NCBI RefSeq assembly: GCF_014643735.1
Contig: NZ_BMKA01000003.1
Location: 372,001 to 436,000, forward strand
Direction: 5' to 3'
DNA: 64,000 nucleotides
DNA from: Neptunicoccus cionae
Lineage (GTDB): Bacteria; Pseudomonadota; Alphaproteobacteria; Rhodobacterales; Rhodobacteraceae
A program made the position numbers and the translations under genes. The notes under the pieces were generated by a model. The model did no database searches and had not been told where the DNA came from. It was given only the letters and a program-made list of their open reading frames with translations. Position 1 is the first letter of the stretch; each line of letters begins with the position of its first letter. Shown piece by piece: positions 2 to 49,495 of the stretch.

Positions 2-1255
2 GACATGCTCGCCAAGGCCAACCGCTCCGTTACCTTGCACGGGCGTGACCCCAAACATGACATGATCCTGTCCGGCAACCGCGTTCACTACGGAACCGCA
101 GGCGCGGCGGTGCATTTGGTAGACGTAGAAAATAACGACTACCGCGAATGCACCGTTCAGGATTTGTATGATGCGGCGCGTATCGTGGACCGGCTCGACA
201 ACGTGCATTTCCTGCAACGCCCGATGGTGTGCCGTGACATTGCAGATAACTTCGAAATGGACCTCAACACGATTTACGCCTGCTGTTCGGGGACAACCAA
301 ACACATCGGCACGTCCTTCACCGAACCGTCCTTCATGAAAGGCGCGTTTGAGATGATCTACGAAATCGCGGGTGGCGAAGCTGCTTACCGCGACCGCCCG
401 TTCATATCCAATTCGAACTGTTTCGTCGTCCCCCCGATGAAATTCGCGACCGAGTCCTGTCAGGTGATGGAGCATTGCGTGCGTGGCGGGATGCCGGTGC
501 TGTTGCTGTCTGCGGGTCAGGCCGGTGCAACCGCCCCTGCCCCGATTGCCGGAGCAATTGTTCAGGCGGTCGCTGAATGCCTTGCCGGTATGGTCTATGT
601 TAACGCGATGGCCCCCGGCCATCCGACAATCTTTGGCACATGGCCCTTTGTGTCGGACCTGCGTACGGGGGCCATGTCGGGTGGCTCTGGCGAGCAAGCG
701 CTTTTGACCGCTGCCTGCGCCCAGATGCACCACTTCCTTGGCTTACCCGGCGGCGCCGCTGCTGGTATTGCGGATGCAAAGATGCCGGATATGCAGGCCG
801 GATACGAGCAGGCCCATTCCAATGTTATGGCAGGTCTCGCCGGTCTGAATATGGTCTACGAATCTGTCGGGATGCATGCCTCCCTCCTCGGGTTCTGCCT
901 TGAAAGCCTGATTATCGGGGACGATTTGCTTGGCCAATCGTTGCGCTGTGTACGCGGGATAGAGGTAACAGAAGACACGGTTTCTCTCGACGTGATCCGT
1001 TCGGTTTGCCTTGAGGGGCCGGGGCACTATCTGGGGTCCGCGCAAACCCTGTCTCTGATGCAAACCGAATACATCTATCCCGCACTCGGGGATCGCAGTT
1101 CGCCGAAGGAGTGGGCAGAACTTGGCAAACCCGATCTCATCCAAAAAGCCATAAAACGAAAGAACGAAATTCTGGCTGAACCGTCAAACGCGCGTCTTGA
1201 CCCGCAAACCGACGCTGCCATTCGCAAGGCCTTTCGCATACATTTACCCGCGTAA
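2..1255 (+). CDS. Trimethylamine methyltransferase (MttB) family protein, 5' end cut by the window
   Basis: The frame is open from the window edge to the stop, giving at least 416 residues; MttB proteins are usually near 480-510 residues, so the amino end lies outside. Glycine-rich stretches such as SAGQAGATAPAPIAGA and GTWPFVSDLRTGAMSGGSGEQ resemble the MttB TIM-barrel. The family moves a methyl group from a quaternary or tertiary amine to a corrinoid protein. No in-frame amber codon is present, so this is a non-pyrrolysine homologue, many of which act on quaternary amines such as glycine betaine. The carnitine genes at 13-17 kb fit a cell using such compounds, but the exact substrate is not visible. 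A MarR gene follows on the same strand. Confidence 0.8.
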   Translation, partial: DMLAKANRSVTLHGRDPKHDMILSGNRVHYGTAGAAVHLVDVENNDYRECTVQDLYDAARIVDRLDNVHFLQRPMVCRDIADNFEMDLNTIYACCSGTTKHIGTSFTEPSFMKGAFEMIYEIAGGEAAYRDRPFISNSNCFVVPPMKFATESCQVMEHCVRGGMPVLLLSAGQAGATAPAPIAGAIVQAVAECLAGMVYVNAMAPGHPTIFGTWPFVSDLRTGAMSGGSGEQALLTAACAQMHHFLGLPGGAAAGIADAKMPDMQAGYEQAHSNVMAGLAGLNMVYESVGMHASLLGFCLESLIIGDDLLGQSLRCVRGIEVTEDTVSLDVIRSVCLEGPGHYLGSAQTLSLMQTEYIYPALGDRSSPKEWAELGKPDLIQKAIKRKNEILAEPSNARLDPQTDAAIRKAFRIHLPA

Positions 1256-1352: not shown

Positions 1353-1781
1353 ATGAGCAAATTCTTCGTTAAGACAGATGAGTCCCTCCCGATTATGCTG
1401 CTTCGCGCCCGTGAGGCCGTGATGCGCAGAATACGGCCCTCCCTGACCAAGCACGATCTGTCCGAACAACAATGGCGCGTTCTGCGAATTCTTGACGAAA
1501 CCGGGCCGCTGGAACCCACGGAACTGGGGGATCGGTGCATGGTTCTTACCCCAAGCCTGACACGCATACTGGCCCTGCTGGAAAAACGCGGCATGATCCG
1601 GCGCGAACAACACCCGACGGACCGGCGTAAACAGATCATTCATCTGGCCCAACCGGGCCACGACATAATAGCTGAAATCGCGCCGGAAGCGCAAAAAATC
1701 TATGAGGATCTGGAGGAGCATTTCGGCAAGCCACAAATGGTCAACCTGCTGAACAAGCTAAAGAAACTTTCAGAGTTTTAA
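1353..1781 (+). CDS. MarR family transcriptional regulator, HpaR-like
   Basis: A 142-residue winged-helix protein. The core SEQQWRVLRILDETGPLEPTEL and the wing HPTDRRKQIIHL match the MarR fold, closest in look to HpaR regulators of aromatic-acid operons. The ATG at 1353 (MSKFFVKTDE) is preferred because the longer open frame would run into the methyltransferase gene. An inverted repeat lies just upstream. The gene converges on pcaB: both stop codons share the bases TTAA at 1778-1781. It may regulate aromatic degradation genes, including pcaB, but the target is inferred. Confidence 0.82.
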   Translation: MSKFFVKTDESLPIMLLRAREAVMRRIRPSLTKHDLSEQQWRVLRILDETGPLEPTELGDRCMVLTPSLTRILALLEKRGMIRREQHPTDRRKQIIHLAQPGHDIIAEIAPEAQKIYEDLEEHFGKPQMVNLLNKLKKLSEF

Positions 1782-3121
1782 GTCTTCTCCGGTCTCTGCC
1801 GCGCAACCAGATCACAGAACCGCGACACGATAGCTTCGGATTCACCAAGGGCGGATCGCGCGTCAAATACGCGGTCCCAATCAATCGCAAGAACCGTTTC
1901 CCGCGCCATGACAGTGCGCAACGGCTCCCCTGATTGGACAGATTTGGCACAAGCAGATTTGGTCAGCGCGCGCGCATCGGCCAGTGGCATATGTTCTGCC
2001 AGCGCAAAACTCGCTGCTTCGGCCATCATCAAACCGTTTGTTTCTTCAAAAACAGAAGCAAGTTTGTCTTGCTCTACGTCCAAAGACCCAGCCAGATCGA
2101 GCCCATGACACAGCGCGGCACCGGTGGCGACGATCAGAGACGGCAGCGAGAGCCATTCCTGCGACCAAGCCGCGCCGTCCCGTTCCTGCGCGTGAAACGC
2201 CGCGCCAGCAACTTGCGCGGCCAGCCCCTGCCCTTGCCGCGCCAGCGCCAGCATCGCCTCGGCCCCTGTCGGGTTGGCTTTGTGGGGCATGGTGCTTGAC
2301 CCGCCGCCAACACCGGCCCGCAGACCGTCCCCGATCTGCGCAGACAACAGTAAATCCTGCGCGATCTTGCCGAGCGAACCGCAGATCAATCCACAAAGGT
2401 TCGCCAATTCGCAAATCCCGTCCCGCGCAGAATGCCACGGCAGTTCGGCACGCCCAAGCCCCAGTTCCTTTGCAAGTGCATCCGCTGTTTCAAGCCCCCG
2501 CCCTTCAAACGCGGAAAGATTTCCCGACGCGCCAGCCAACGAAACCACCAGCACACGGGGCCGCAGCTCCGCCAGTCTTTGACGATGGCGCAGGAACGGC
2601 GCCCCCCAGCTTGCGATCCGCGCACCAAGGGCCGTCGGTGTAGCGATCTGATGCCGCGTCCGCGCCCCCATCGGGGTGGTTTTGTGGGTTTCAGCCTGTT
2701 TTGCCAAAGTGTCCAGCAAAACCGCCAACCGAGCATCCAGAATGTCGAGCACTCGGCGCAGGCGAAGAACCAGTGCGGTGTCGATAATATCCTGCGATGT
2801 CGCGCCTTTGTGCAGGTAAGCACTGTGTTCCGGCGCTTGCATTTCTGTTGCAAAGGCCGCCACAAGGGCTGGAACCACAACACCGTCCCGCGCTACTCCC
2901 GCAGCTAGGTGGCCAGGATCAATCAGCACTTCGCGGGCCATGCGGTTGATGATCTCACCGCTTTCTTGCGGAATCGTTCCAAGCTTGCCTTGCGCGGCGG
3001 CCAGCGCCCCTTCGACCAAAAGCATCGCGCGGACTTCGGCACTGTCCGAGAACAACACCGAAAGCTCGTTATCCCCGAACAACCCTTTAAACATCTGCCC
3101 TTCGGCCAAGGAAATCGCCAT
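1778..3121 (-). CDS. pcaB: 3-carboxy-cis,cis-muconate cycloisomerase
   Basis: A 447-residue member of the fumarase/aspartase superfamily, cytoplasmic. The superfamily signature GSSTMPHKANP is at residues 274-284 and the substrate-binding GATSQDI stretch near residue 106. In the protocatechuate branch of the beta-ketoadipate pathway the enzyme converts 3-carboxymuconate to 4-carboxymuconolactone. The frame stays open up to 3265, but homologues begin near MAISLAEGQMF, so the ATG at 3121 was chosen; its ribosome site is weak. No other pca gene lies in the window, so the rest of the pathway must be elsewhere. Adenylosuccinate lyase is the main alternative; the length and the SAGQ-free, Ala-rich carboxyl half favour PcaB. 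Confidence 0.85.
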   Translation of the reverse strand: MAISLAEGQMFKGLFGDNELSVLFSDSAEVRAMLLVEGALAAAQGKLGTIPQESGEIINRMAREVLIDPGHLAAGVARDGVVVPALVAAFATEMQAPEHSAYLHKGATSQDIIDTALVLRLRRVLDILDARLAVLLDTLAKQAETHKTTPMGARTRHQIATPTALGARIASWGAPFLRHRQRLAELRPRVLVVSLAGASGNLSAFEGRGLETADALAKELGLGRAELPWHSARDGICELANLCGLICGSLGKIAQDLLLSAQIGDGLRAGVGGGSSTMPHKANPTGAEAMLALARQGQGLAAQVAGAAFHAQERDGAAWSQEWLSLPSLIVATGAALCHGLDLAGSLDVEQDKLASVFEETNGLMMAEAASFALAEHMPLADARALTKSACAKSVQSGEPLRTVMARETVLAIDWDRVFDARSALGESEAIVSRFCDLVARQRPEKT

Positions 3122-3349
3122 GATCACACCCGTATTCTGATTTTGCGCGACCATACATTTTGCAATCGTGAAGGTCATCCGGATTTTTAGGGGCACGCGA
3201 GATTGTCGAATATCGAGAGGTGTGTGCGCGCGGGGACGTAAAACTATGAACGGGCAAGGCCGCATGCCTTATAAAGTGGACCTTGTGCCGTGTGAAACGC
3301 GAAATTCGTGCTTGGTAACATGCGGTTTTATAATACATATTCTTATTAA

Positions 3350-3399
3350 CATACTGCATATATGAAGCTTCATATAAGAAGCTTCTTAAATGAAGCTTC
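3350..3399. repeat. Palindromic array 1 (three 8-bp palindromes at 14-bp period)
   Basis: GAAGCTTC occurs at 3364-3371, 3378-3385 and 3392-3399, exactly 14 bases apart, separated by AT-rich hexamers. One register step upstream, at 3350-3357, is CATACTGC, the reverse complement of the GCAGTATG that ends array 3. No matching cap is seen on the right. The array lies in the divergent gap between pcaB and the esterase gene. Confidence 0.9.
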
Positions 3400-3459
3400 A
3401 AGGTTAACCATTCGTTAGGTAAGTCTTGCAGCCCCACCCCACCGGTCCTAAGTTAAGCC

Positions 3460-4377
3460 ATGGATTATTCAAAACACATCGATGCTGAAACTTGGGATTT
3501 CATCAATAAAACGGCGGAATATTATCCTCCGGACACGGTGGACAACACTGTCGAGCAACAGCGCGAAATCTACGACACCATGTGCCGCGCTTTTTTCACC
3601 GGCTACCCCGAAGGCGTCAGCGCAACGGATCATCTGATCGATCACATTCCTACCCGCCAATACACCTGCGGCGGCTCGGAGACGACTGTGATGTATTTCC
3701 ACGGCGGTGGTTTTGTTGTGGGGGGATTGGACTCTCATGACGATGTCTGCGCCGAAATTTGCGAGCGGACCGGAATGGACGTGGTTTCAGTAGATTACCG
3801 GATGGCGCCTGAGCATAAGCATCCCGCCATGTTCGACGATTGCCTCGCTGCAACGCAGCACATTCTGGCAACTCGGGAGGGACCTGTGATCCTCGCCGGT
3901 GACAGTGCTGGTGGCAATCTGGGCGCGACCGTCAGCCACCGCCTGCGCAGCAATCCCCGCCTGATCGGTCAGGTGCTGATCTATCCGGGGCTTGGCGGGG
4001 ATATTGATGCGGGCTCCTTCCTGACCCACGCCAATGCACCAATGCTCACACGGGATGAAATCCTGTTCTATGAGGGCGTGCGCTATAACGGGCCGAAACC
4101 CACCAATGACCCCACCGCGGTTCCGCTGCAAGACACGGAGTTTTCTAATCTGCCCCCCACTGTGCTGATCTCGGCAGAATGCGATCCGATCACAGATGGT
4201 TGCCGCGATTACCGCGATGCCCTGACAGCCGCGGGTGTTAACGTGGTCTGGTTTAATGAAACCGGTCTGGTTCACGGCTATCTGCGCGGGCGCCATACGG
4301 TTAAACGGGCGCGGGACAGTTTTGACCGCGTGATCGACGCTTTGAACGCGCTGCAACGGCGGGACTGGCCCTATTAA
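3460..4377 (+). CDS. Alpha/beta hydrolase, hormone-sensitive-lipase (family IV) type esterase
   Basis: A 305-residue protein with the family IV hallmarks: oxyanion-hole HGGG at residues 81-84, nucleophile elbow GDSAGG with Ser149, then Asp242 in CDPITD and His272 in VHGYLR completing the triad. Such enzymes hydrolyse short acyl esters or related carboxylic esters; no signal peptide is seen, so it should be cytoplasmic. It is followed after 24 bases by a sulfotransferase-like gene and the pair probably forms one transcript. The two genes are bracketed by palindromic arrays 1 and 2. The natural substrate cannot be told from sequence. Confidence 0.88.
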   Translation: MDYSKHIDAETWDFINKTAEYYPPDTVDNTVEQQREIYDTMCRAFFTGYPEGVSATDHLIDHIPTRQYTCGGSETTVMYFHGGGFVVGGLDSHDDVCAEICERTGMDVVSVDYRMAPEHKHPAMFDDCLAATQHILATREGPVILAGDSAGGNLGATVSHRLRSNPRLIGQVLIYPGLGGDIDAGSFLTHANAPMLTRDEILFYEGVRYNGPKPTNDPTAVPLQDTEFSNLPPTVLISAECDPITDGCRDYRDALTAAGVNVVWFNETGLVHGYLRGRHTVKRARDSFDRVIDALNALQRRDWPY

Positions 4378-4401
4378 CTGAATTGTGACGGACCCGCAGA
4401 T

Positions 4402-5010
4402 ATGATGATCGATTACGACCGGAAGCTGGTGTTCCTGTCCAACCGGAAGGTGGCTTCAACCTCGATGGAGCGCGCACTTGGGCAAGTCAAAGGCATGGCG
4501 CGGATGAATGGCAATCCGGTGCTTAAACACATCGATTACACCCGATACAAGCGGATGGAGCAGCCGCTGCGCACTAAGGGATTTACCACGATCACCGTGG
4601 TGCGAGAGCCTTTCGACAAAGCTGTCAGCTGGTACAAGTTCCGCGCGCGTCCCGAACTGAAAGGTGATCCCCGTTACGTCGGACATCTGGATTTTGAAAC
4701 CTTTCTGACCAACTTTATCACTGGCAAAAGCGGCTGGGCGATGGAGTTTCTCGACAACCTATTCTGCACGGACAGCCGCAGTGGAGAAACCGTGGATGTC
4801 ATCCACAGATACGAAAAACTCGGTGCATTCGAAACCCTGTTGCAGAACATATACGGCGACGATTTAACGCTGCCCCATTTGAATGTGTCCGCAGCTGTCG
4901 CCGACACGGATTTCGCCATGCACCGCGCCCGATACGAGGCCGCCTTCCCAGAGGCGTTTGACTGGTATCGCGCCCTTCCAGCACCTTTGGAAACGCTGGG
5001 CAGTCGGTGA
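4402..5010 (+). CDS. Sulfotransferase family 2-like protein
   Basis: A 202-residue protein with a PAPS-type phosphosulfate loop in NRKVASTSMERAL (from residue 14) and the 3'-phosphate binding motif VREPFDKAVSWYK (from residue 67, Arg68 and Ser76). A later RYEKL segment is also usual in this family. Members transfer sulfate from PAPS to carbohydrate or other hydroxyl groups. At this size it is a minimal single-domain form, and no membrane anchor is seen. A second ATG directly follows the first, so the start is uncertain by one codon. It sits 24 bases after the esterase gene and ends just before array 2. The acceptor is unknown; surface polysaccharide is possible given the capsule genes at 38-43 kb, but that link is speculative. 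Confidence 0.78.
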   Translation: MMIDYDRKLVFLSNRKVASTSMERALGQVKGMARMNGNPVLKHIDYTRYKRMEQPLRTKGFTTITVVREPFDKAVSWYKFRARPELKGDPRYVGHLDFETFLTNFITGKSGWAMEFLDNLFCTDSRSGETVDVIHRYEKLGAFETLLQNIYGDDLTLPHLNVSAAVADTDFAMHRARYEAAFPEAFDWYRALPAPLETLGSR

Positions 5011-5011
5011 T

Positions 5012-5103
5012 CACCCTGCATTTACGAAGCTTCATTTAAGACGCTTCATAAATGAAGCTTCCTGTATGACGCGTCTTGTATGACGCTTCATATTTGCAGG
5101 GTC
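5012..5103. repeat. Palindromic array 2 (five 8-bp units at 14-bp period with inverted end caps)
   Basis: Units start at 5026 (GAAGCTTC), 5040 (GACGCTTC), 5054 (GAAGCTTC), 5068 (GACGCGTC) and 5082 (GACGCTTC), in perfect 14-bp register. One step outside each end lies an inverted cap: CACCCTGC at 5012-5019 and GCAGGGTC at 5096-5103. Bases 5065-5102 are identical, on the opposite strand, to 48517-48554 of array 3. The array lies between two convergent genes, so a simple promoter role is unlikely here. Confidence 0.93.
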
Positions 5104-5173: not shown

Positions 5174-6010
5174 TTACGACAAAAACGGCTTCGCTTTCAT
5201 CGTTTCGGGCACCTCTGCCCCCAATCTGGTCAGGATCGTCGGCGCAAGTTGCACCTGCTCTAGCACCGTATCTGCCGCAGGCCCTTTAGCATCCCCGAAA
5301 TAATACAACGCAAATTCTTGTTGCAGCGCAGACCGCCCCCCGTGATGGCCGCGCTCGTCCTGCCCGTGATCCGCCGTCACCATCACCTCATAGCCTGCAG
5401 CCCGCCATTTCGGGATAAACGGTGCCAGCATCTCGTCCATGATGAAACAGGCCCCGTCCATTTCCTCGCTCTCGTGGAAATATCGGTGCCCCATACTGTC
5501 CAGCGTACAGGTGTGCAGCATCCCGTAATCCAGACCGAACCGCATGCACAGATTGGTCAGCGTGCCAAACAAGTCTAGATCGCAAGGCGTCATCTGGTTG
5601 GCGCGGCCATACCCCGTCATTGTGTGAAAGCGTCCGTGGTTGATCGTATCGCTCTCCGGTTCATCATATTCCACGTCCCGCACGTTATCGAACGGCGCGC
5701 GGTTAAAGAACTCGGACCAGAAGGAATGGGCCACCGCCCCTGTCACGCCACCCGCCTGACGCACTTGCGAAAATACGTCCGGATGCTTCAGCCGGAACAC
5801 ATTGCCATTGCCGGTACAGCCGTGCTCCGCCGGCACGACGCCCGTGTGGATCGATGCATAACAGCTCGCCGAAATAGACGGCAGAACCGAGCGCATCTTC
5901 CATTTCTGCGCATTGCCTGCATCCACATGGCCTTCCAGATTGCCGAACAACCGGCCCCAGTTGCGCCAGGGCACACCGTCCAAAATAATTAGCAGCAGTT
6001 TGTTGTTCAT
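5174..6010 (-). CDS. Alkaline phosphatase superfamily protein (phosphodiesterase/nucleotide pyrophosphatase type)
   Basis: About 278 residues. Counting from the possible upstream start at 6019, metal-ligand candidates are Asp14 in LDGVPW, Asp174 and His178/His182 in LDSMGHRYFH, and Asp217-His218 in ADHGQDERGHHGG, with a nucleophile region around PSISASCYASIHTG. That pattern is typical of the type I phosphodiesterase branch. No signal peptide is seen. The second ATG (6010) is preferred because AAGGA lies eight bases before it; the first ATG overlaps that site. It follows the ABC operon on the same strand, but a good terminator separates them. Substrate unknown. Confidence 0.8.
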   Translation of the reverse strand: MNNKLLLIILDGVPWRNWGRLFGNLEGHVDAGNAQKWKMRSVLPSISASCYASIHTGVVPAEHGCTGNGNVFRLKHPDVFSQVRQAGGVTGAVAHSFWSEFFNRAPFDNVRDVEYDEPESDTINHGRFHTMTGYGRANQMTPCDLDLFGTLTNLCMRFGLDYGMLHTCTLDSMGHRYFHESEEMDGACFIMDEMLAPFIPKWRAAGYEVMVTADHGQDERGHHGGRSALQQEFALYYFGDAKGPAADTVLEQVQLAPTILTRLGAEVPETMKAKPFLS

Positions 6011-6041
6011 CTTATCCATCCTTACGCTCGGCAGATCTCAC

Positions 6042-6095: not shown

Positions 6096-7733
6096 TTAGT
6101 TGCCAGCGCTTTCCATCTTGCGGTGCGCGATTACCTCTTCCAACCAGCCGAGCTTCATTTCCGGCACAGAGGACAGCAGCAGATCGGTGTAATCGTCAAA
6201 CGGCGGCGACAGCACTTCGGACTTCGTCCCGTAACGCACCACTTTGCCCTGATACATCACCGCAATACTGTCGGCGATGGCCCGCACTGTGGCCAGATCG
6301 TGGGTGATGAACAGATAAGCCACGTTTTCGATCTTTTGCAGGTTCAGAAGCAGCTTCAAAATCCCGTCCGCCACCAGCGGGTCGAGCGCGGAAGTCACCT
6401 CGTCGCAGATGATCATCTTGGGCTTGGCCGCCAGTGCGCGCGCAATACAGACCCGTTGCTTTTGTCCACCAGACAGCTCTGCCGGATAGCGGTCGATAAA
6501 GCCGTCGGCCATCTCGATTTCCTCCAGCAACTCCTTGATGCGTTTACGCTTTTCCGCGCCGCGCATCCCAAAGTAGAACTCCAGCGGGCGCCCGATGATC
6601 GTTCCGACGGTCTGGCGCGGGTTCATCGCCGTATCCGCCATCTGATAGATCATCTGCAACTCGCGCAGGTCTTCCTTACTGCGTTGTTCAAGTGCAGGGC
6701 TCAGCGTGCGACCGGCAAAGTTGATATCACCGTCGCTTGGCGGCAACAGACCAGTAATCACCCGCGCGAGCGTCGATTTACCAGACCCACTTTCCCCCAC
6801 AACAGCCAGCGTCTGACCTTCGTGCAGGTCCACACTGATGTTGCGCAGCACGTCAAAGTTCGTGCCACGGTAACGGGCTGTCACATGATTAACGCTCAAC
6901 ACCGGATCGGGCGTTGGCTGCTTTTCCTCGTGATCAATAGACCGCACCGAGACGAGCGCTTGGGTGTACTCTTCCTGCGGGTTGTTAATGATCTGATCCA
7001 CAGTGCCATATTCCACAGTCTCGCCCATGCGCAGCACCATGATGTCATCAGACACCTGCGCAACCACAGCCAGATCGTGGGTAATATACAGCGCTGCAAC
7101 ACCGGTATCACGGATCGCTGCCTTGATCGCCATCAACACGTCGATCTGTGTTGTCACATCAAGCGCCGTAGTCGGTTCGTCAAACACCACCAGATCCGGT
7201 TCGGGGCACAGGGCAAGTGCTGTCATACAGCGCTGCAACTGCCCGCCGGACACCTGATGGGGATAGCGGTTGCCGATGGTTTCAGGATTGGGCAGGCCGA
7301 GTTTGTCAAACAGGCGCACAGCGCGTGCTTCGGCTTCCTTTCGGGAAAACTTCCCCTGCAGGATCGCCGCCTCTGTCACCTGCTCCATGATCTTTTTGGC
7401 AGGGTTGAAAGATGCCGCCGCCGACTGGCTGACATAGGTCACATCCGCCCCGCGCAAACGACGCAGGTCGCGGATACCGTGTTTCAGGATATCCTGACCG
7501 TTGACCCAAACCTCGCCGCCGGTGATTTTCACACCGCCGCGGCCATAGGCCATCGCCGACAGGCCGATGGTGGATTTACCCGCACCGGATTCCCCGATCA
7601 GCCCCAGCACCTTGCCCTTCTCTAGGTCAAAAGACACACCATGCACGATTTCGATATCATGGGGTTTGCCGCTCGGCGGATAGACCGTCGCGCCGATTTT
7701 CAGGTCACGCACCTTTAACATAGCATCGCTCAT
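6096..7733 (-). CDS. Dipeptide/oligopeptide ABC transporter, fused double ATP-binding protein
   Basis: 545 residues with two complete ABC modules, equivalent to DppD and DppF joined. The first has Walker A GESGAGKST at residues 47-55 and signature VSGGQLQR; the second repeats GESGSGKST and LSGGQKQR. Each also has a Walker B with the following Glu (VFDEPTTALD, ICDEVTSALD), so both should hydrolyse ATP. It powers the two permeases encoded just upstream; start and permease stop overlap by four bases. The terminator after this gene ends the operon. The likely cargo is a peptide or related compound, fitting the peptidase-like hydrolase gene upstream. Confidence 0.92.
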   Translation of the reverse strand: MSDAMLKVRDLKIGATVYPPSGKPHDIEIVHGVSFDLEKGKVLGLIGESGAGKSTIGLSAMAYGRGGVKITGGEVWVNGQDILKHGIRDLRRLRGADVTYVSQSAAASFNPAKKIMEQVTEAAILQGKFSRKEAEARAVRLFDKLGLPNPETIGNRYPHQVSGGQLQRCMTALALCPEPDLVVFDEPTTALDVTTQIDVLMAIKAAIRDTGVAALYITHDLAVVAQVSDDIMVLRMGETVEYGTVDQIINNPQEEYTQALVSVRSIDHEEKQPTPDPVLSVNHVTARYRGTNFDVLRNISVDLHEGQTLAVVGESGSGKSTLARVITGLLPPSDGDINFAGRTLSPALEQRSKEDLRELQMIYQMADTAMNPRQTVGTIIGRPLEFYFGMRGAEKRKRIKELLEEIEMADGFIDRYPAELSGGQKQRVCIARALAAKPKMIICDEVTSALDPLVADGILKLLLNLQKIENVAYLFITHDLATVRAIADSIAVMYQGKVVRYGTKSEVLSPPFDDYTDLLLSSVPEMKLGWLEEVIAHRKMESAGN

Positions 7734-47144: not shown

Positions 47145-48308
47145 ATGGCACCAATTACCAACATCTATGATCTGAAAGCCCTGCACCAGCAGCGCACACC
47201 GCGTATGTTTTACGACTACGCCGAAAGCGGCAGCTGGAGCGAGCAGACCTTTCGCGACAACGTAGATGATTTTGCGCGCCTGCGTCTGCGTCAGAAGGTG
47301 GCTGTGGATATGACCAACCGTACCACGCGGATGCCGATGCTCGGGCAGGAATATGCGATGCCGGTGTCCCTTGCGCCGATTGGCATGCTGGGGATGCAGC
47401 ATCCCGACGGTGAGATCCTCGCCGCGCAAGCCGCCGAAGCATTCGATGTGCCCTTTACCCTTTCCACCATGTCGATCTGCTCGATCGAGGATGTGGCCGA
47501 AAACACCACCAAACCTTTCTGGTTCCAGCTGTACGTGATGAAAGACCGCGATTACATCAACCGGTTGATTGACCGCGCCAAAGCGGCGAATTGTTCGGCG
47601 CTGGTGTTGACTTATGATCTGCAAATCCTCGGGCAGCGGCACAAGGATATTAAAAACGGCCTCTCCGCGCCACCGCGCCTGACACTGCCAAACATCATGA
47701 ACATCGCGAGCAAACCGCGCTGGGCTTACAATATGCTCAACACCAAACGGCGCGGATTTCGCAATATTATCGGCCACGTCAAAGGCGTTGAGGATATGAC
47801 CGACCTGTCGGCATGGACGGCCGAGCAGTTTGACCCGACACTGGATTGGAACGATGTGGCGTGGATCAAAGAACGCTGGGGTGGGCCGTTGATCCTGAAG
47901 GGGATTCTGGATGTGGATGACGCGAAGAAAGCTGTCGAGGTCGGGGCCGATGCGCTGATCGTGTCGAACCACGGGGGCCGCCAGCTTGACGGGGCGATGT
48001 CCTCTATCCGGATGTTGCCTGACATCGTTGACGCGGTGGGCGATCAGATTGAAGTTCACATGGACGGGGGCATCCGCTCTGGTCAGGACGTGCTAAAGGC
48101 GATTTCCTTGGGGGCCAAGGGGACGATGATCGGACGCTCGTTCGTACATGGTTTGGGCGCAATGGGGCGCGAAGGCGTGAAAGCCGCGCTTGATGTGATC
48201 CACAAGGAGCTGGACATCACTATGGCGCTCTGCGGGGAGCGGGACCTGAACAATATGGGGCGGAATAACCTGCTGATCCCGAAGGATTTCCGCGGGGAAT
48301 GGGAATAG
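47145..48308 (+). CDS. lldD: FMN-dependent alpha-hydroxy-acid dehydrogenase (L-lactate dehydrogenase type)
   Basis: 387 residues. SNHGGRQLDGAMSS holds the catalytic His and Arg, and the FMN-binding features VSLAPIGMLGMQHPDGE and DGGIRSGQDVLKAISLGAKG are clear. LldD oxidises L-lactate to pyruvate at the membrane. Related enzymes act on mandelate or glycolate, so the exact substrate is probable, not certain. A strong terminator follows. Confidence 0.87.
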   Translation: MAPITNIYDLKALHQQRTPRMFYDYAESGSWSEQTFRDNVDDFARLRLRQKVAVDMTNRTTRMPMLGQEYAMPVSLAPIGMLGMQHPDGEILAAQAAEAFDVPFTLSTMSICSIEDVAENTTKPFWFQLYVMKDRDYINRLIDRAKAANCSALVLTYDLQILGQRHKDIKNGLSAPPRLTLPNIMNIASKPRWAYNMLNTKRRGFRNIIGHVKGVEDMTDLSAWTAEQFDPTLDWNDVAWIKERWGGPLILKGILDVDDAKKAVEVGADALIVSNHGGRQLDGAMSSIRMLPDIVDAVGDQIEVHMDGGIRSGQDVLKAISLGAKGTMIGRSFVHGLGAMGREGVKAALDVIHKELDITMALCGERDLNNMGRNNLLIPKDFRGEWE

Positions 48309-48372: not shown

Positions 48373-48853
48373 GTGCGTGATGTTTTTGGACTAGGCTGCG
48401 CTCCCCCGCGGGCAACGCCGCTGGCAAGTCGCTCATTGACCACCAGATCCCCGAACAAAGAGAACTCTTTTTGAAGAATCCTTAGCCGGAAAAACGGCCA
48501 ATCGCATCTGCTTATCACCCTGCAAATATGAAGCGTCATACAAGACGCGTCATATATGAAGCTTCATTTAAGAAGCTTCATATCGGCAGTATGTTAACGG
48601 CATTTTCGAAGCAAAATCATCACCTTATGCTCCCCGCACTTAAATCGCACCCCAGTGCTGCGCGCCCTCGCCCCTTTGTACTTCCAGCAAACCTCCGCCA
48701 TAAAACACCACACACGACGACGGCCCATGCCCCCCGGCCACACAGCGCACCAGATTCAGGCTTGCCTTTTCACCATTTCCCCCCTAATGGAGCGGCTTCA
48801 CGCGGCACTTACACCCTTGGAGGATTGCCGCCTTTACATATTGGAGAATTATC
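48373..48853. other. Intergenic region between lldD and rplY
   Basis: About 480 bases. It holds palindromic array 3 (48516-48593) and then the leader and probable promoter of rplY. No convincing gene was found: the open frames across it run into rplY out of frame. TTGGAG at 48840 is the ribosome site of rplY. Confidence 0.7.
48516..48593. repeat. Palindromic array 3 (four 8-bp units at 14-bp period with end caps)
   Basis: Units are GAAGCGTC (48530), GACGCGTC (48544), GAAGCTTC (48558) and GAAGCTTC (48572), again in exact 14-bp register. Caps lie one step outside on both sides: CACCCTGC at 48516-48523 and GCAGTATG at 48586-48593. Bases 48517-48554 equal 5065-5102 of array 2 in opposite orientation. 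Confidence 0.93.
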
Positions 48854-49495
48854 ATGGCCGAGATGCCAAACATCATCGCCACATCACGCGACGGGACCGG
48901 CAAGGGGGCCGCCCGTCAAGCTCGTCGCGACGGGCTTGTACCTGGTGTTGTCTACGGCGGCGGCGAAGAGCCGATCGCGATCAACGTAAAATTCAACGAA
49001 CTTCTGAAACAGCTGAAAGCCGGCCGTTTCCTTTCCACACTTTTCAACCTCAAAGTTGAAGGTCAGGAAGATGTTCGTGTGATCTGCCGTAACGTCCAGC
49101 GCGATGTTGTGAAAGACCTGCCTGTTCACCTCGACCTGATGCGCCTGCGTCGCACATCCCGTGTGAACCTGTTCGTACCTGTAACCTTCATCAACGAAGA
49201 AACCTCCGTTGGCCTGAAGCGTGGCGGCGTTCTGACAGTTGTGCGTAACGAGATCGAACTGAAAGTGACAGCGGGCAACATCCCTGACGCGATCGAAATC
49301 GATCTGGCCGATCTGGACGTAGGCGACATCGTTCACATTTCCGACGTGACCCTGCCAGAAGGTTCGCGCCCGATGATCACAGACCGTGACTTCGTGATTG
49401 CGAACATCTCTGCACCGTCCAGCCTGAAATCTGCGGATGACGAAGCTGAAGACGAAGCAGAAGCAGCACCGGCAGAAGACGCCGCAGAAGAATAA
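48854..49495 (+). CDS. rplY: 50S ribosomal protein L25, general stress (CTC) form
   Basis: 213 residues, the long CTC form with a carboxyl extension and an acidic tail ([15 protein letters not shown]). [27 protein letters not shown] is the L25 opening. It binds 5S rRNA. TTGGAG lies eight bases upstream of the start. A strong terminator separates it from pth, although the two genes are commonly neighbours. Confidence 0.95.

What the first reader, a model, noticed from the sequence alone, without database searches (positions are those of the whole stretch)
3350..5103. Dispersed element of phased 8-bp palindromes at exact 14-bp period
Three intergenic loci carry 3, 5 and 4 copies of GAMGCKTC with AT-rich hexamer spacers, always 14 bases apart (3364/3378/3392; 5026/5040/5054/5068/5082; 48530/48544/48558/48572). 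Caps CACCCTGC, CATACTGC or their reverse complements sit one 14-bp step outside. At 10.5 bp per turn successive sites rotate by about 120 degrees, so every third one faces the same side. Because each unit is its own reverse complement, adjacent units can also pair into 8-bp stems with 6-base loops in RNA. I do not know a described family with this layout. It could be a multi-site binding platform, a centromere-like array, or an RNA element; the function is inference.
Basis: partly seen in the sequence, partly recalled or inferred. Interest (0 to 1): 0.85.

Follow-up and report, generated by a model that had tools for sequence, protein, structure and literature searches.

The report
Phased palindrome arrays at gene ends
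A small group of marine bacteria carries a dispersed family of short DNA arrays, built of 8-base palindrome-like sites 14 bases apart and placed mostly where genes end, whose letters are conserved as if a protein reads them; which protein, and what for, is not known.

Summary
In detail: three arrays of GAMGCKTC at exact 14-base steps, capped one step outside (array 1 on one side only). They belong to a dispersed family: of 64 public stretches with three exact units, 37 come from four related genomes (two Neptunicoccus, two MAGs) and 27 look unrelated. I catalogued 79 arrays, about 31 orthologous loci. All lie between predicted genes, 46 between convergent ones; 119 of 158 ends face a gene 3' end. 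Close exact 8-mers are 14, 28 or 42 bases apart in 178 of 178 cases. Orthologous arrays of equal length are 88-97% alike where flanks are 64-78%. Compensatory changes do not exceed permutation, so the linear DNA sequence, not RNA pairing, seems to be kept, although the arrays fold strongly. I read it as a multi-site DNA platform for an unidentified protein at gene 3' ends: REP/BIME-like in place, unlike in sequence and build, with no Y1 transposase and no target-site duplication. Some uncapped ends carry a CtrA-like box. In the outgroup MAG the step is not strict. Function remains inference.

The parts
3346..3357 (+). left end of array 1, type B: TTAA + cap CATACTGC (reverse complement of GCAGTATG)
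   Evidence: same kind of end at the orthologous array in G001, G002 and G003; GCAGTATG is the third most common cap, 24 of 158 ends
3364..3399 (.). array 1: 3 units GAAGCTTC at 14-base steps, between divergent genes 1778-3265(-) (lyase family) and 3460-4377(+) (alpha/beta hydrolase)
   Evidence: orthologues with 3 units in G001, G002 and G003
3404..3418 (+). right end of array 1, type C: TTAA-N7-TTAG (CtrA-like box) four bases after the last unit
   Evidence: 12 of 37 uncapped ends against 4 of 1818 intergenic 40-mers carry TTAA-N7-TTAR
5012..5019 (+). left cap CACCCTGC of array 2; the TGA stop of the gene 4402-5010 adjoins it
5026..5089 (.). array 2: 5 units at 14-base steps, between convergent genes 4402-5010(+) (sulfotransferase family) and 5174-6019(-) (phosphodiesterase family)
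   Evidence: 5 units in G001 and G002, 2 units in G003 at the orthologous place
5096..5103 (+). right cap GCAGGGTC of array 2
   Evidence: GCAGGGTG and GCAGGGTC together are 87 of 158 ends
48516..48523 (+). left cap CACCCTGC of array 3
48530..48579 (.). array 3: 4 units at 14-base steps, downstream of 47145-48308(+) (FMN-dependent dehydrogenase) and upstream of 48854-49495(+) (ribosomal protein L25). A mechanical ORF 48528-48989 spans it but was not predicted as a gene.
   Evidence: orthologues with 4, 3 and 4 units in G001, G002, G003
48586..48597 (+). right end of array 3, type B: cap GCAGTATG + TTAA

Best explanation
A dispersed, clade-specific DNA element: a row of 2 to 7 near-palindromic 8-mers at 14-base steps (repeat GAMGCKTC WTNNAW), mostly closed by degenerate cap units. 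I propose that a sequence-specific dimeric protein binds the units side by side and forms a short nucleoprotein block at gene 3' ends, above all between convergent genes, where it acts as a boundary (stops read-through or holds transcription-driven supercoils). Shown: the arrays, their phase, their place, the conservation of the linear sequence, and no excess of compensatory changes. Inferred: that a protein binds, its dimeric form, and the boundary role. The copies were probably spread once like a BIME or MITE (inference) and are now mostly inherited in place.
For: 79 arrays in 69 of 70 sources scanned (window plus 69 loci of three genomes): all between predicted genes (two touch a gene end by 2 bases); 46 convergent, 27 tandem, 6 divergent, against 20, 157 and 91 of 268 non-array gaps of 100 bases or more (Fisher p 1.5e-20, computed there with 20 of 267). 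As orthologues are not independent: within single genomes 16 of 30, 15 of 23 and 14 of 23 are convergent, p 1.2e-7, 1.6e-8, 4.2e-7. 119 of 158 ends face a gene 3' end, median 104 bases from the last unit. Distances between consecutive exact 8-mers within 150 bases: 14 (148), 28 (25), 42 (5), none off step. 72 orthologous pairs: flanks 64-78% identical, caps 74-89%; in the 37 pairs of equal unit number arrays 88-97%, with changes at 29 of 1030 fixed and 121 of 680 free positions. Double compensatory changes: 1, 5, 4 for unit, spacer and whole-array pairing against permutation means 0.55, 3.57, 2.63. 38 of 108 gene 3' sides have a predicted intrinsic terminator between stop codon and array, 4 in shuffles.
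Against: No binding protein has been identified and no experiment was run. Place at gene 3' ends is also what plain repetitive elements show when promoters are avoided. 6 of 79 arrays, from two orthologous groups, lie between divergent genes, among them array 1 and its orthologues. In the outgroup MAG the step is not strict: 12 (1), 14 (15), 26 (7). Some sites are empty or decayed in sister species, so single arrays are dispensable. Conservation could in part come from exchange between copies. The finder tolerates few mismatches, so decayed arrays were not counted and conservation is overstated; fixed and free positions were defined on the same data. Unit symmetry is weak: 166 of 293 units are exact palindromes. 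Gaps were compared only inside loci chosen for their arrays, with gene calls from a home-made script. On 70 of 108 gene 3' sides no terminator was found before the array.
Confidence: 0.45

Rival explanations
1. A REP/BIME- or MITE-like mobile repeat with no host function: arrays were spread by a transposase acting in trans, tolerated at gene 3' ends, and are now decaying.
For: In the outgroup MAG G004 an 85-base element has, among 17 listed matches (short and opposite-strand ones included), 5 of 64 bases or more at 93-100% identity, the query itself being one; this points to recent copying. Two arrays of G001 are absent at the orthologous place in G002 and G003, and one is decayed in G002. REPs too are reported mainly between convergent and unidirectional genes (PMC3733652, passages seen). 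26 of 79 arrays have the GCAGGGT type of cap inverted at both ends.
Against: Arrays are conserved well above their flanks, and fixed positions change about six times less than free ones. No target-site duplication: mean longest match 0.5 against 0.72 in shuffles over 26 arrays. No clean empty site was seen at the four places looked at. Y1_Tnp (PF01797) was not found in 4 of 4 genomes; no other transposase family was sought.
Confidence: 0.3
2. An RNA element: the array is transcribed from either side and folds into hairpins that end or protect mRNA 3' ends.
For: The three window arrays fold much better than shuffles: z -5.05, -7.95, -7.24. Most array ends face gene 3' ends. Array 2 begins right at a stop codon. 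Pooled tables show weak positive association for pairing within units (odds 1.87, p 0.024) and across the spacer (2.20, p 0.0084).
Against: Orthologues are pooled in those tables; single genomes give p below 0.05 in only one of 12 tests, and pairing of the outer arms of neighbours tends to be negative. Whole-array pairing shows no association (p 0.64). No clear excess of double compensatory changes in any scheme: 136, 85 and 70 of 300 permutations reach the observed number. 32 changes at the outer G/C of units, none compensated, though only about one would be expected to be by chance. A T-run (6 of 8) lies outside only 14 of 158 array ends, while predicted terminators stand before the array on 38 of 108 sides. 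No Rfam family at these sites at gathering score.
Confidence: 0.12
3. A topology platform tied to GapR or gyrase at sites of positive supercoiling.
For: GapR maps to 3' ends and convergent genes in E. coli and yeast and to 3' ends in Caulobacter (PMC8360656, passages seen); BIME-2 binds gyrase (PMC2817692, passages seen). gapR is present in 4 of 4 genomes, and in 3 of 4 its 3' end lies 118-121 bases from an array, including the only 7-unit array, in G001.
Against: GapR is not known to read a sequence of this kind and is spread through alphaproteobacteria (both recalled) while the arrays are not; the gapR contig of G004 (5311 bases) has no exact unit. The neighbourhood is one orthologous locus, found after the fact; by rough reckoning of mine, not from a call, some 60 of about 3900 genes flank an array, so chance is near 1.5%.
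Confidence: 0.08

Closest known systems
REP / BIME elements (GTAG and CGTC super-families)
   Same: Dispersed, intergenic, palindromic, often in arrays, mostly between convergent and unidirectional genes; BIMEs bind proteins (PMC3733652, PMC2817692, PMC12306157, passages seen).
   Different: Unit is an 8-mer in a 14-base repeat, not a 20-40 base hairpin with a GTAG or CGTC tag; 14-base phase; caps; no Y1 transposase found in the four genomes; 23-30 arrays catalogued per genome, where REPs usually exceed 100 copies (PMC2817692).
MITEs
   Different: No target-site duplication, no clean empty site; several cap types; internal repeats vary in number. A parent transposon was not sought beyond Y1_Tnp.
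Operator arrays of cooperative repressors (such as met boxes of MetJ; recalled, not tested)
   Same: Short palindromic boxes repeated at a fixed step.
   Different: Here most ends face gene 3' ends (119 of 158), not promoters.
CtrA boxes of alphaproteobacteria (TTAA-N7-TTAAC, PMC4046655, passages seen)
   Same: 12 of 37 uncapped ends carry TTAA-N7-TTAR at one fixed offset.
   Different: Joined to an array; most are TTAA-N7-TTAG; binding by CtrA not tested.

Membership tests
REP/BIME | extragenic and multi-copy with a common consensus | tested here: met
   79 of 79 arrays between predicted genes; 14-mer composition over 214 repeats
REP/BIME | palindrome able to form a stem-loop | tested here: inconclusive
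   folds strongly but pairing is not clearly under selection
REP (GTAG class) | RAYT / Y1 transposase in the genome | tested here: not met
   PF01797: 0 of 4 genomes, rings in 5 of 14 controls; two of the four are MAGs
REP (CGTC class) | unpaired CGTC tag at one end of a 20-40 base hairpin | tested here: not met
   CGTC lies inside the octamer and is not fixed: position 6 is T in 128 and G in 84 of 214 repeats
MITE | target-site duplication | tested here: not met
   26 arrays with the same cap type at both ends, mean 0.5 against 0.72 in shuffles
MITE | terminal inverted repeats | tested here: inconclusive
   same cap type inverted at both ends in 26 of 79 arrays; most others have unlike ends
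MITE | parent autonomous transposon with matching ends | not tested
   only the Y1_Tnp family was sought
Intrinsic terminator | hairpin followed by a T-run | tested here: not met
   14 of 158 ends have 6 of 8 T within 30 bases
Known Rfam RNA | match above gathering score | tested here: not met
   only PYLIS_3 at 767-866 in the window
CtrA box | TTAA-N7-TTAAC sequence | tested here: inconclusive
   the looser TTAA-N7-TTAR is in 12 of 37 uncapped ends (5 orthologous groups), 3 of 121 capped ends, 4 of 1818 background 40-mers; by eye 2 of the 12 have the full TTAA-N7-TTAAC
CtrA box | bound by CtrA in cells | not testable with these tools
   needs ChIP or gel shift

The most novel reading that the evidence does not exclude
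A dedicated site-specific boundary system: a clade-specific protein polymerises on 14-base-phased sites between convergent genes, with capped ends that stop the filament and CtrA-like boxes that tie some arrays to the cell cycle, so that the chromosome has marked, inherited transcription or topology boundaries.
Probability: 0.2. Interest if true: 0.8.

Novelty: new variant of a known kind. Interest (0 to 1): 0.5.

Why it matters
If the arrays are read by a protein, they are a ready-made set of 23 to 30 catalogued sites per genome, mostly at gene 3' ends, in a genus with named isolates, with unit number varying between sister species. That makes the question whether bacteria mark convergent gene junctions with specific DNA-bound barriers directly testable. 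If they are only repeats, they are still a family that I did not find described, and show how phased palindromes arise and are kept.

Tried and rejected
RNA covariation: self, adjacent, outer and mirror pairing were tested by contingency tables and by permutation on 37 equal-length orthologous pairs; weak pooled associations only. Target-site duplications: none. Empty sites: G002 lacks the array of L116 and the region is wholly diverged; the arrays of L105 (13745) and L112 are absent in G002 and G003 without a clean scar, and that of L113 is decayed in G002. RAYT: none. Integron attC and CRISPR were considered and dropped by inspection only, no formal test. Even spacing along contigs: p 0.096 (G002) and 0.52 (G001), 17 gaps each. 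Plasmids: one weak hit, E 4; viral contigs: no exact match. Papers: searches returned 0 papers; some searches returned listings in which no title or abstract start describes this family (only 15 of 754, 12 of 32, 8 of 8, 6 of 6, 15 of 1505 and 10 of 383 papers were listed). The library holds open-licence papers only.

Limits of the counts. The 79 arrays are not a full census: G001 was listed only in part, G003 was chosen by the CTGC cap pattern, and at least two G003 arrays (L042, L058) are outside the 79. L104 (two caps, one unit at G001:C31:39033) gave no array, and one cap match of G003 (C24:58238) was not fetched. That unit numbers differ by whole 14-base steps between orthologues is built into the finder; the independent evidence is the 8-mer distances. 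The G004 loci (12) are not in the 79; two of them, L170 and L171, have near-identical flanks and may be one place. The 394 genomes are a draw from a larger group and did not include G002, G003 or G004.

Full report
Observation. The two-unit pattern has nine matches in the window, all in these arrays, and none in 100 shuffles. Array 1 has one cap only; 9 of 12 units are exact palindromes.

Where it occurs. A scan of the collection of 84,980 species genomes for three exact units gave 64 stretches. By title, and by inspection of their flanks, 37 belong to Neptunicoccus sediminis (15), Amylibacter cionae (10; I take it to be the Neptunicoccus cionae), Rhodobacteraceae MAG P03SST1bin.12 (10) and an uncultured Amylibacter MAG (2); the other 27 are mostly GC-rich tandem repeats without caps. 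IMG/VR gave none. Of 394 genomes drawn from the family, 3 had the two-unit pattern: N. sediminis with 60 forward matches and two with one match each; the reversed control pattern also matched once in 6 of the 394, so single matches look like chance. A similarity search with an element of the outgroup MAG found 1 of 394, again N. sediminis. These draws did not include the other three genomes. The window is 87% identical to N. sediminis over 6.2 kb, with two of its arrays at the same places, so I take it to come from a close relative.

Anatomy. I catalogued 79 arrays in the window and 69 loci (0.98 Mb; 69 of 70 sources had one): 3 in the window, 30 in N. sediminis (G001), 23 in N. cionae (G002), 23 in the MAG (G003). 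Counted by hand they fall into about 31 orthologous loci. They have 2 to 7 units (15, 21, 19, 21, 2, 1). Over 214 repeats the 14-mer is G A M G C K T C W T N N A W, with A2, G4, C5 and T7 in at least 213 of 214 and T10, A13 in 202 and 203. Of 290 exact 8-mers, 257 lie in arrays; the other 33 are outside, 27 of them in predicted genes. Consecutive exact 8-mers within 150 bases are 14, 28 or 42 apart in 178 of 178 cases. Caps sit on the same step: GCAGGGTG 44, GCAGGGTC 43, GCAGTATG 24, GCAGTGTC 3 of 158 ends. Of 37 ends that my pattern calls uncapped (a few have degenerate caps), 12 have TTAA-N7-TTAR, against 3 of 121 capped ends and 4 of 1818 background 40-mers; in all 12 the box starts at the same offset, and the 12 come from five orthologous groups (groups). 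This resembles the CtrA consensus TTAA-N7-TTAAC used for Dinoroseobacter (PMC4046655, passages), but binding is untested.

Place. All 79 lie between predicted genes, two touching a gene end by 2 bases: 46 convergent, 27 tandem, 6 divergent. Non-array gaps of 100 bases or more in the same loci: 20 convergent, 157 tandem, 91 divergent. Within single genomes the excess stays: 16 of 30, 15 of 23, 14 of 23 convergent against 7 of 100, 5 of 78, 5 of 69. 119 of 158 ends face a gene 3' end. The gene finder was a codon-usage script of mine, so single calls may be wrong.

Evolution. Flanks on both sides pair up 72 orthologous array pairs between genomes. Identity: flanks 0.64-0.78, caps 0.74-0.89, arrays of equal unit number (37 pairs) 0.88-0.97. 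Changes at fixed positions 29 of 1030, at free positions 121 of 680. The classes of positions were taken from the same data, so the comparison with flanks is the safer one, and the finder drops decayed arrays. Some arrays are absent or decayed in sisters. In the outgroup MAG G004 exact units are 12, 14 or 26 bases apart (1, 15 and 7 of 23), and five copies of one element of 64 bases or more are 93-100% identical, the query included. This suggests that the family once spread as a repeat and that the strict step is a feature of the Neptunicoccus branch.

DNA or RNA. The arrays fold well as RNA, as inverted repeats do. Pooled tables give weak support for pairing within units and across spacers, none for whole-array pairing and a negative trend for outer arms; by genome only one of 12 tests is below 0.05. 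32 changes at the outer G/C of units are never compensated, a weak test since about one would be expected. Double compensatory changes do not exceed permutation in any of three pairing schemes. T-runs follow 14 of 158 array ends, and predicted intrinsic terminators precede the array on 38 of 108 gene 3' sides (4 in shuffles). The linear sequence is what seems to be kept. I therefore favour a DNA-bound protein.

Mechanism. Inference: side-by-side binding of dimers on 14-base repeats, closed by weaker cap units, makes a block at gene 3' ends. Such a block could stop read-through between convergent genes or hold supercoils; published parallels are gyrase on BIME-2 (PMC2817692, passages) and GapR at convergent genes (PMC8360656, passages). 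gapR ends 118-121 bases from an array in 3 of 4 genomes, a lead that may be chance.

Known or new. It shares place and palindromic nature with REP/BIME elements but lacks their tags, unit size and Y1 transposase, and lacks the target-site duplications of MITEs. I call it a new variant of a known kind. No paper describing it was seen in the searches named in Tried and rejected.

Noticed in passing
window 767-866 (+): Rfam PYLIS_3 (pyrrolysine insertion sequence of mttB), 53.1 bits, within the ORF 5-1255(+); possibly a homologue of the non-pyrrolysine MttB family (recalled), not checked.
   Followed up: no
L101, L097, L084 (right of the arrays): gapR lies convergent to an array 118-121 bases away in N. 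sediminis, the MAG and N. cionae; the N. sediminis array there is the only one with 7 units. The gapR contig of the outgroup MAG has no exact unit.
   Followed up: partly
12 of 37 uncapped array ends, e.g. window 3404-3418: CtrA-like TTAA-N7-TTAR boxes at a fixed offset from the last unit, far above background.
   Followed up: partly
L162, L163, L164, L166, L167 (G004): Near-identical copies with a 26-base step between exact units, which suggests recent copying in the outgroup MAG.
   Followed up: partly
L094, just left of the array at 6632: Two CACCCTGC caps in a row outside one array.
   Followed up: no
inner units of arrays: The outer G or C of a unit is swapped (GACGCGTG, CACGCTTC and the like) in 32 units, only in inner units, and shared between species in several orthologous groups; meaning unknown.
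   Followed up: partly
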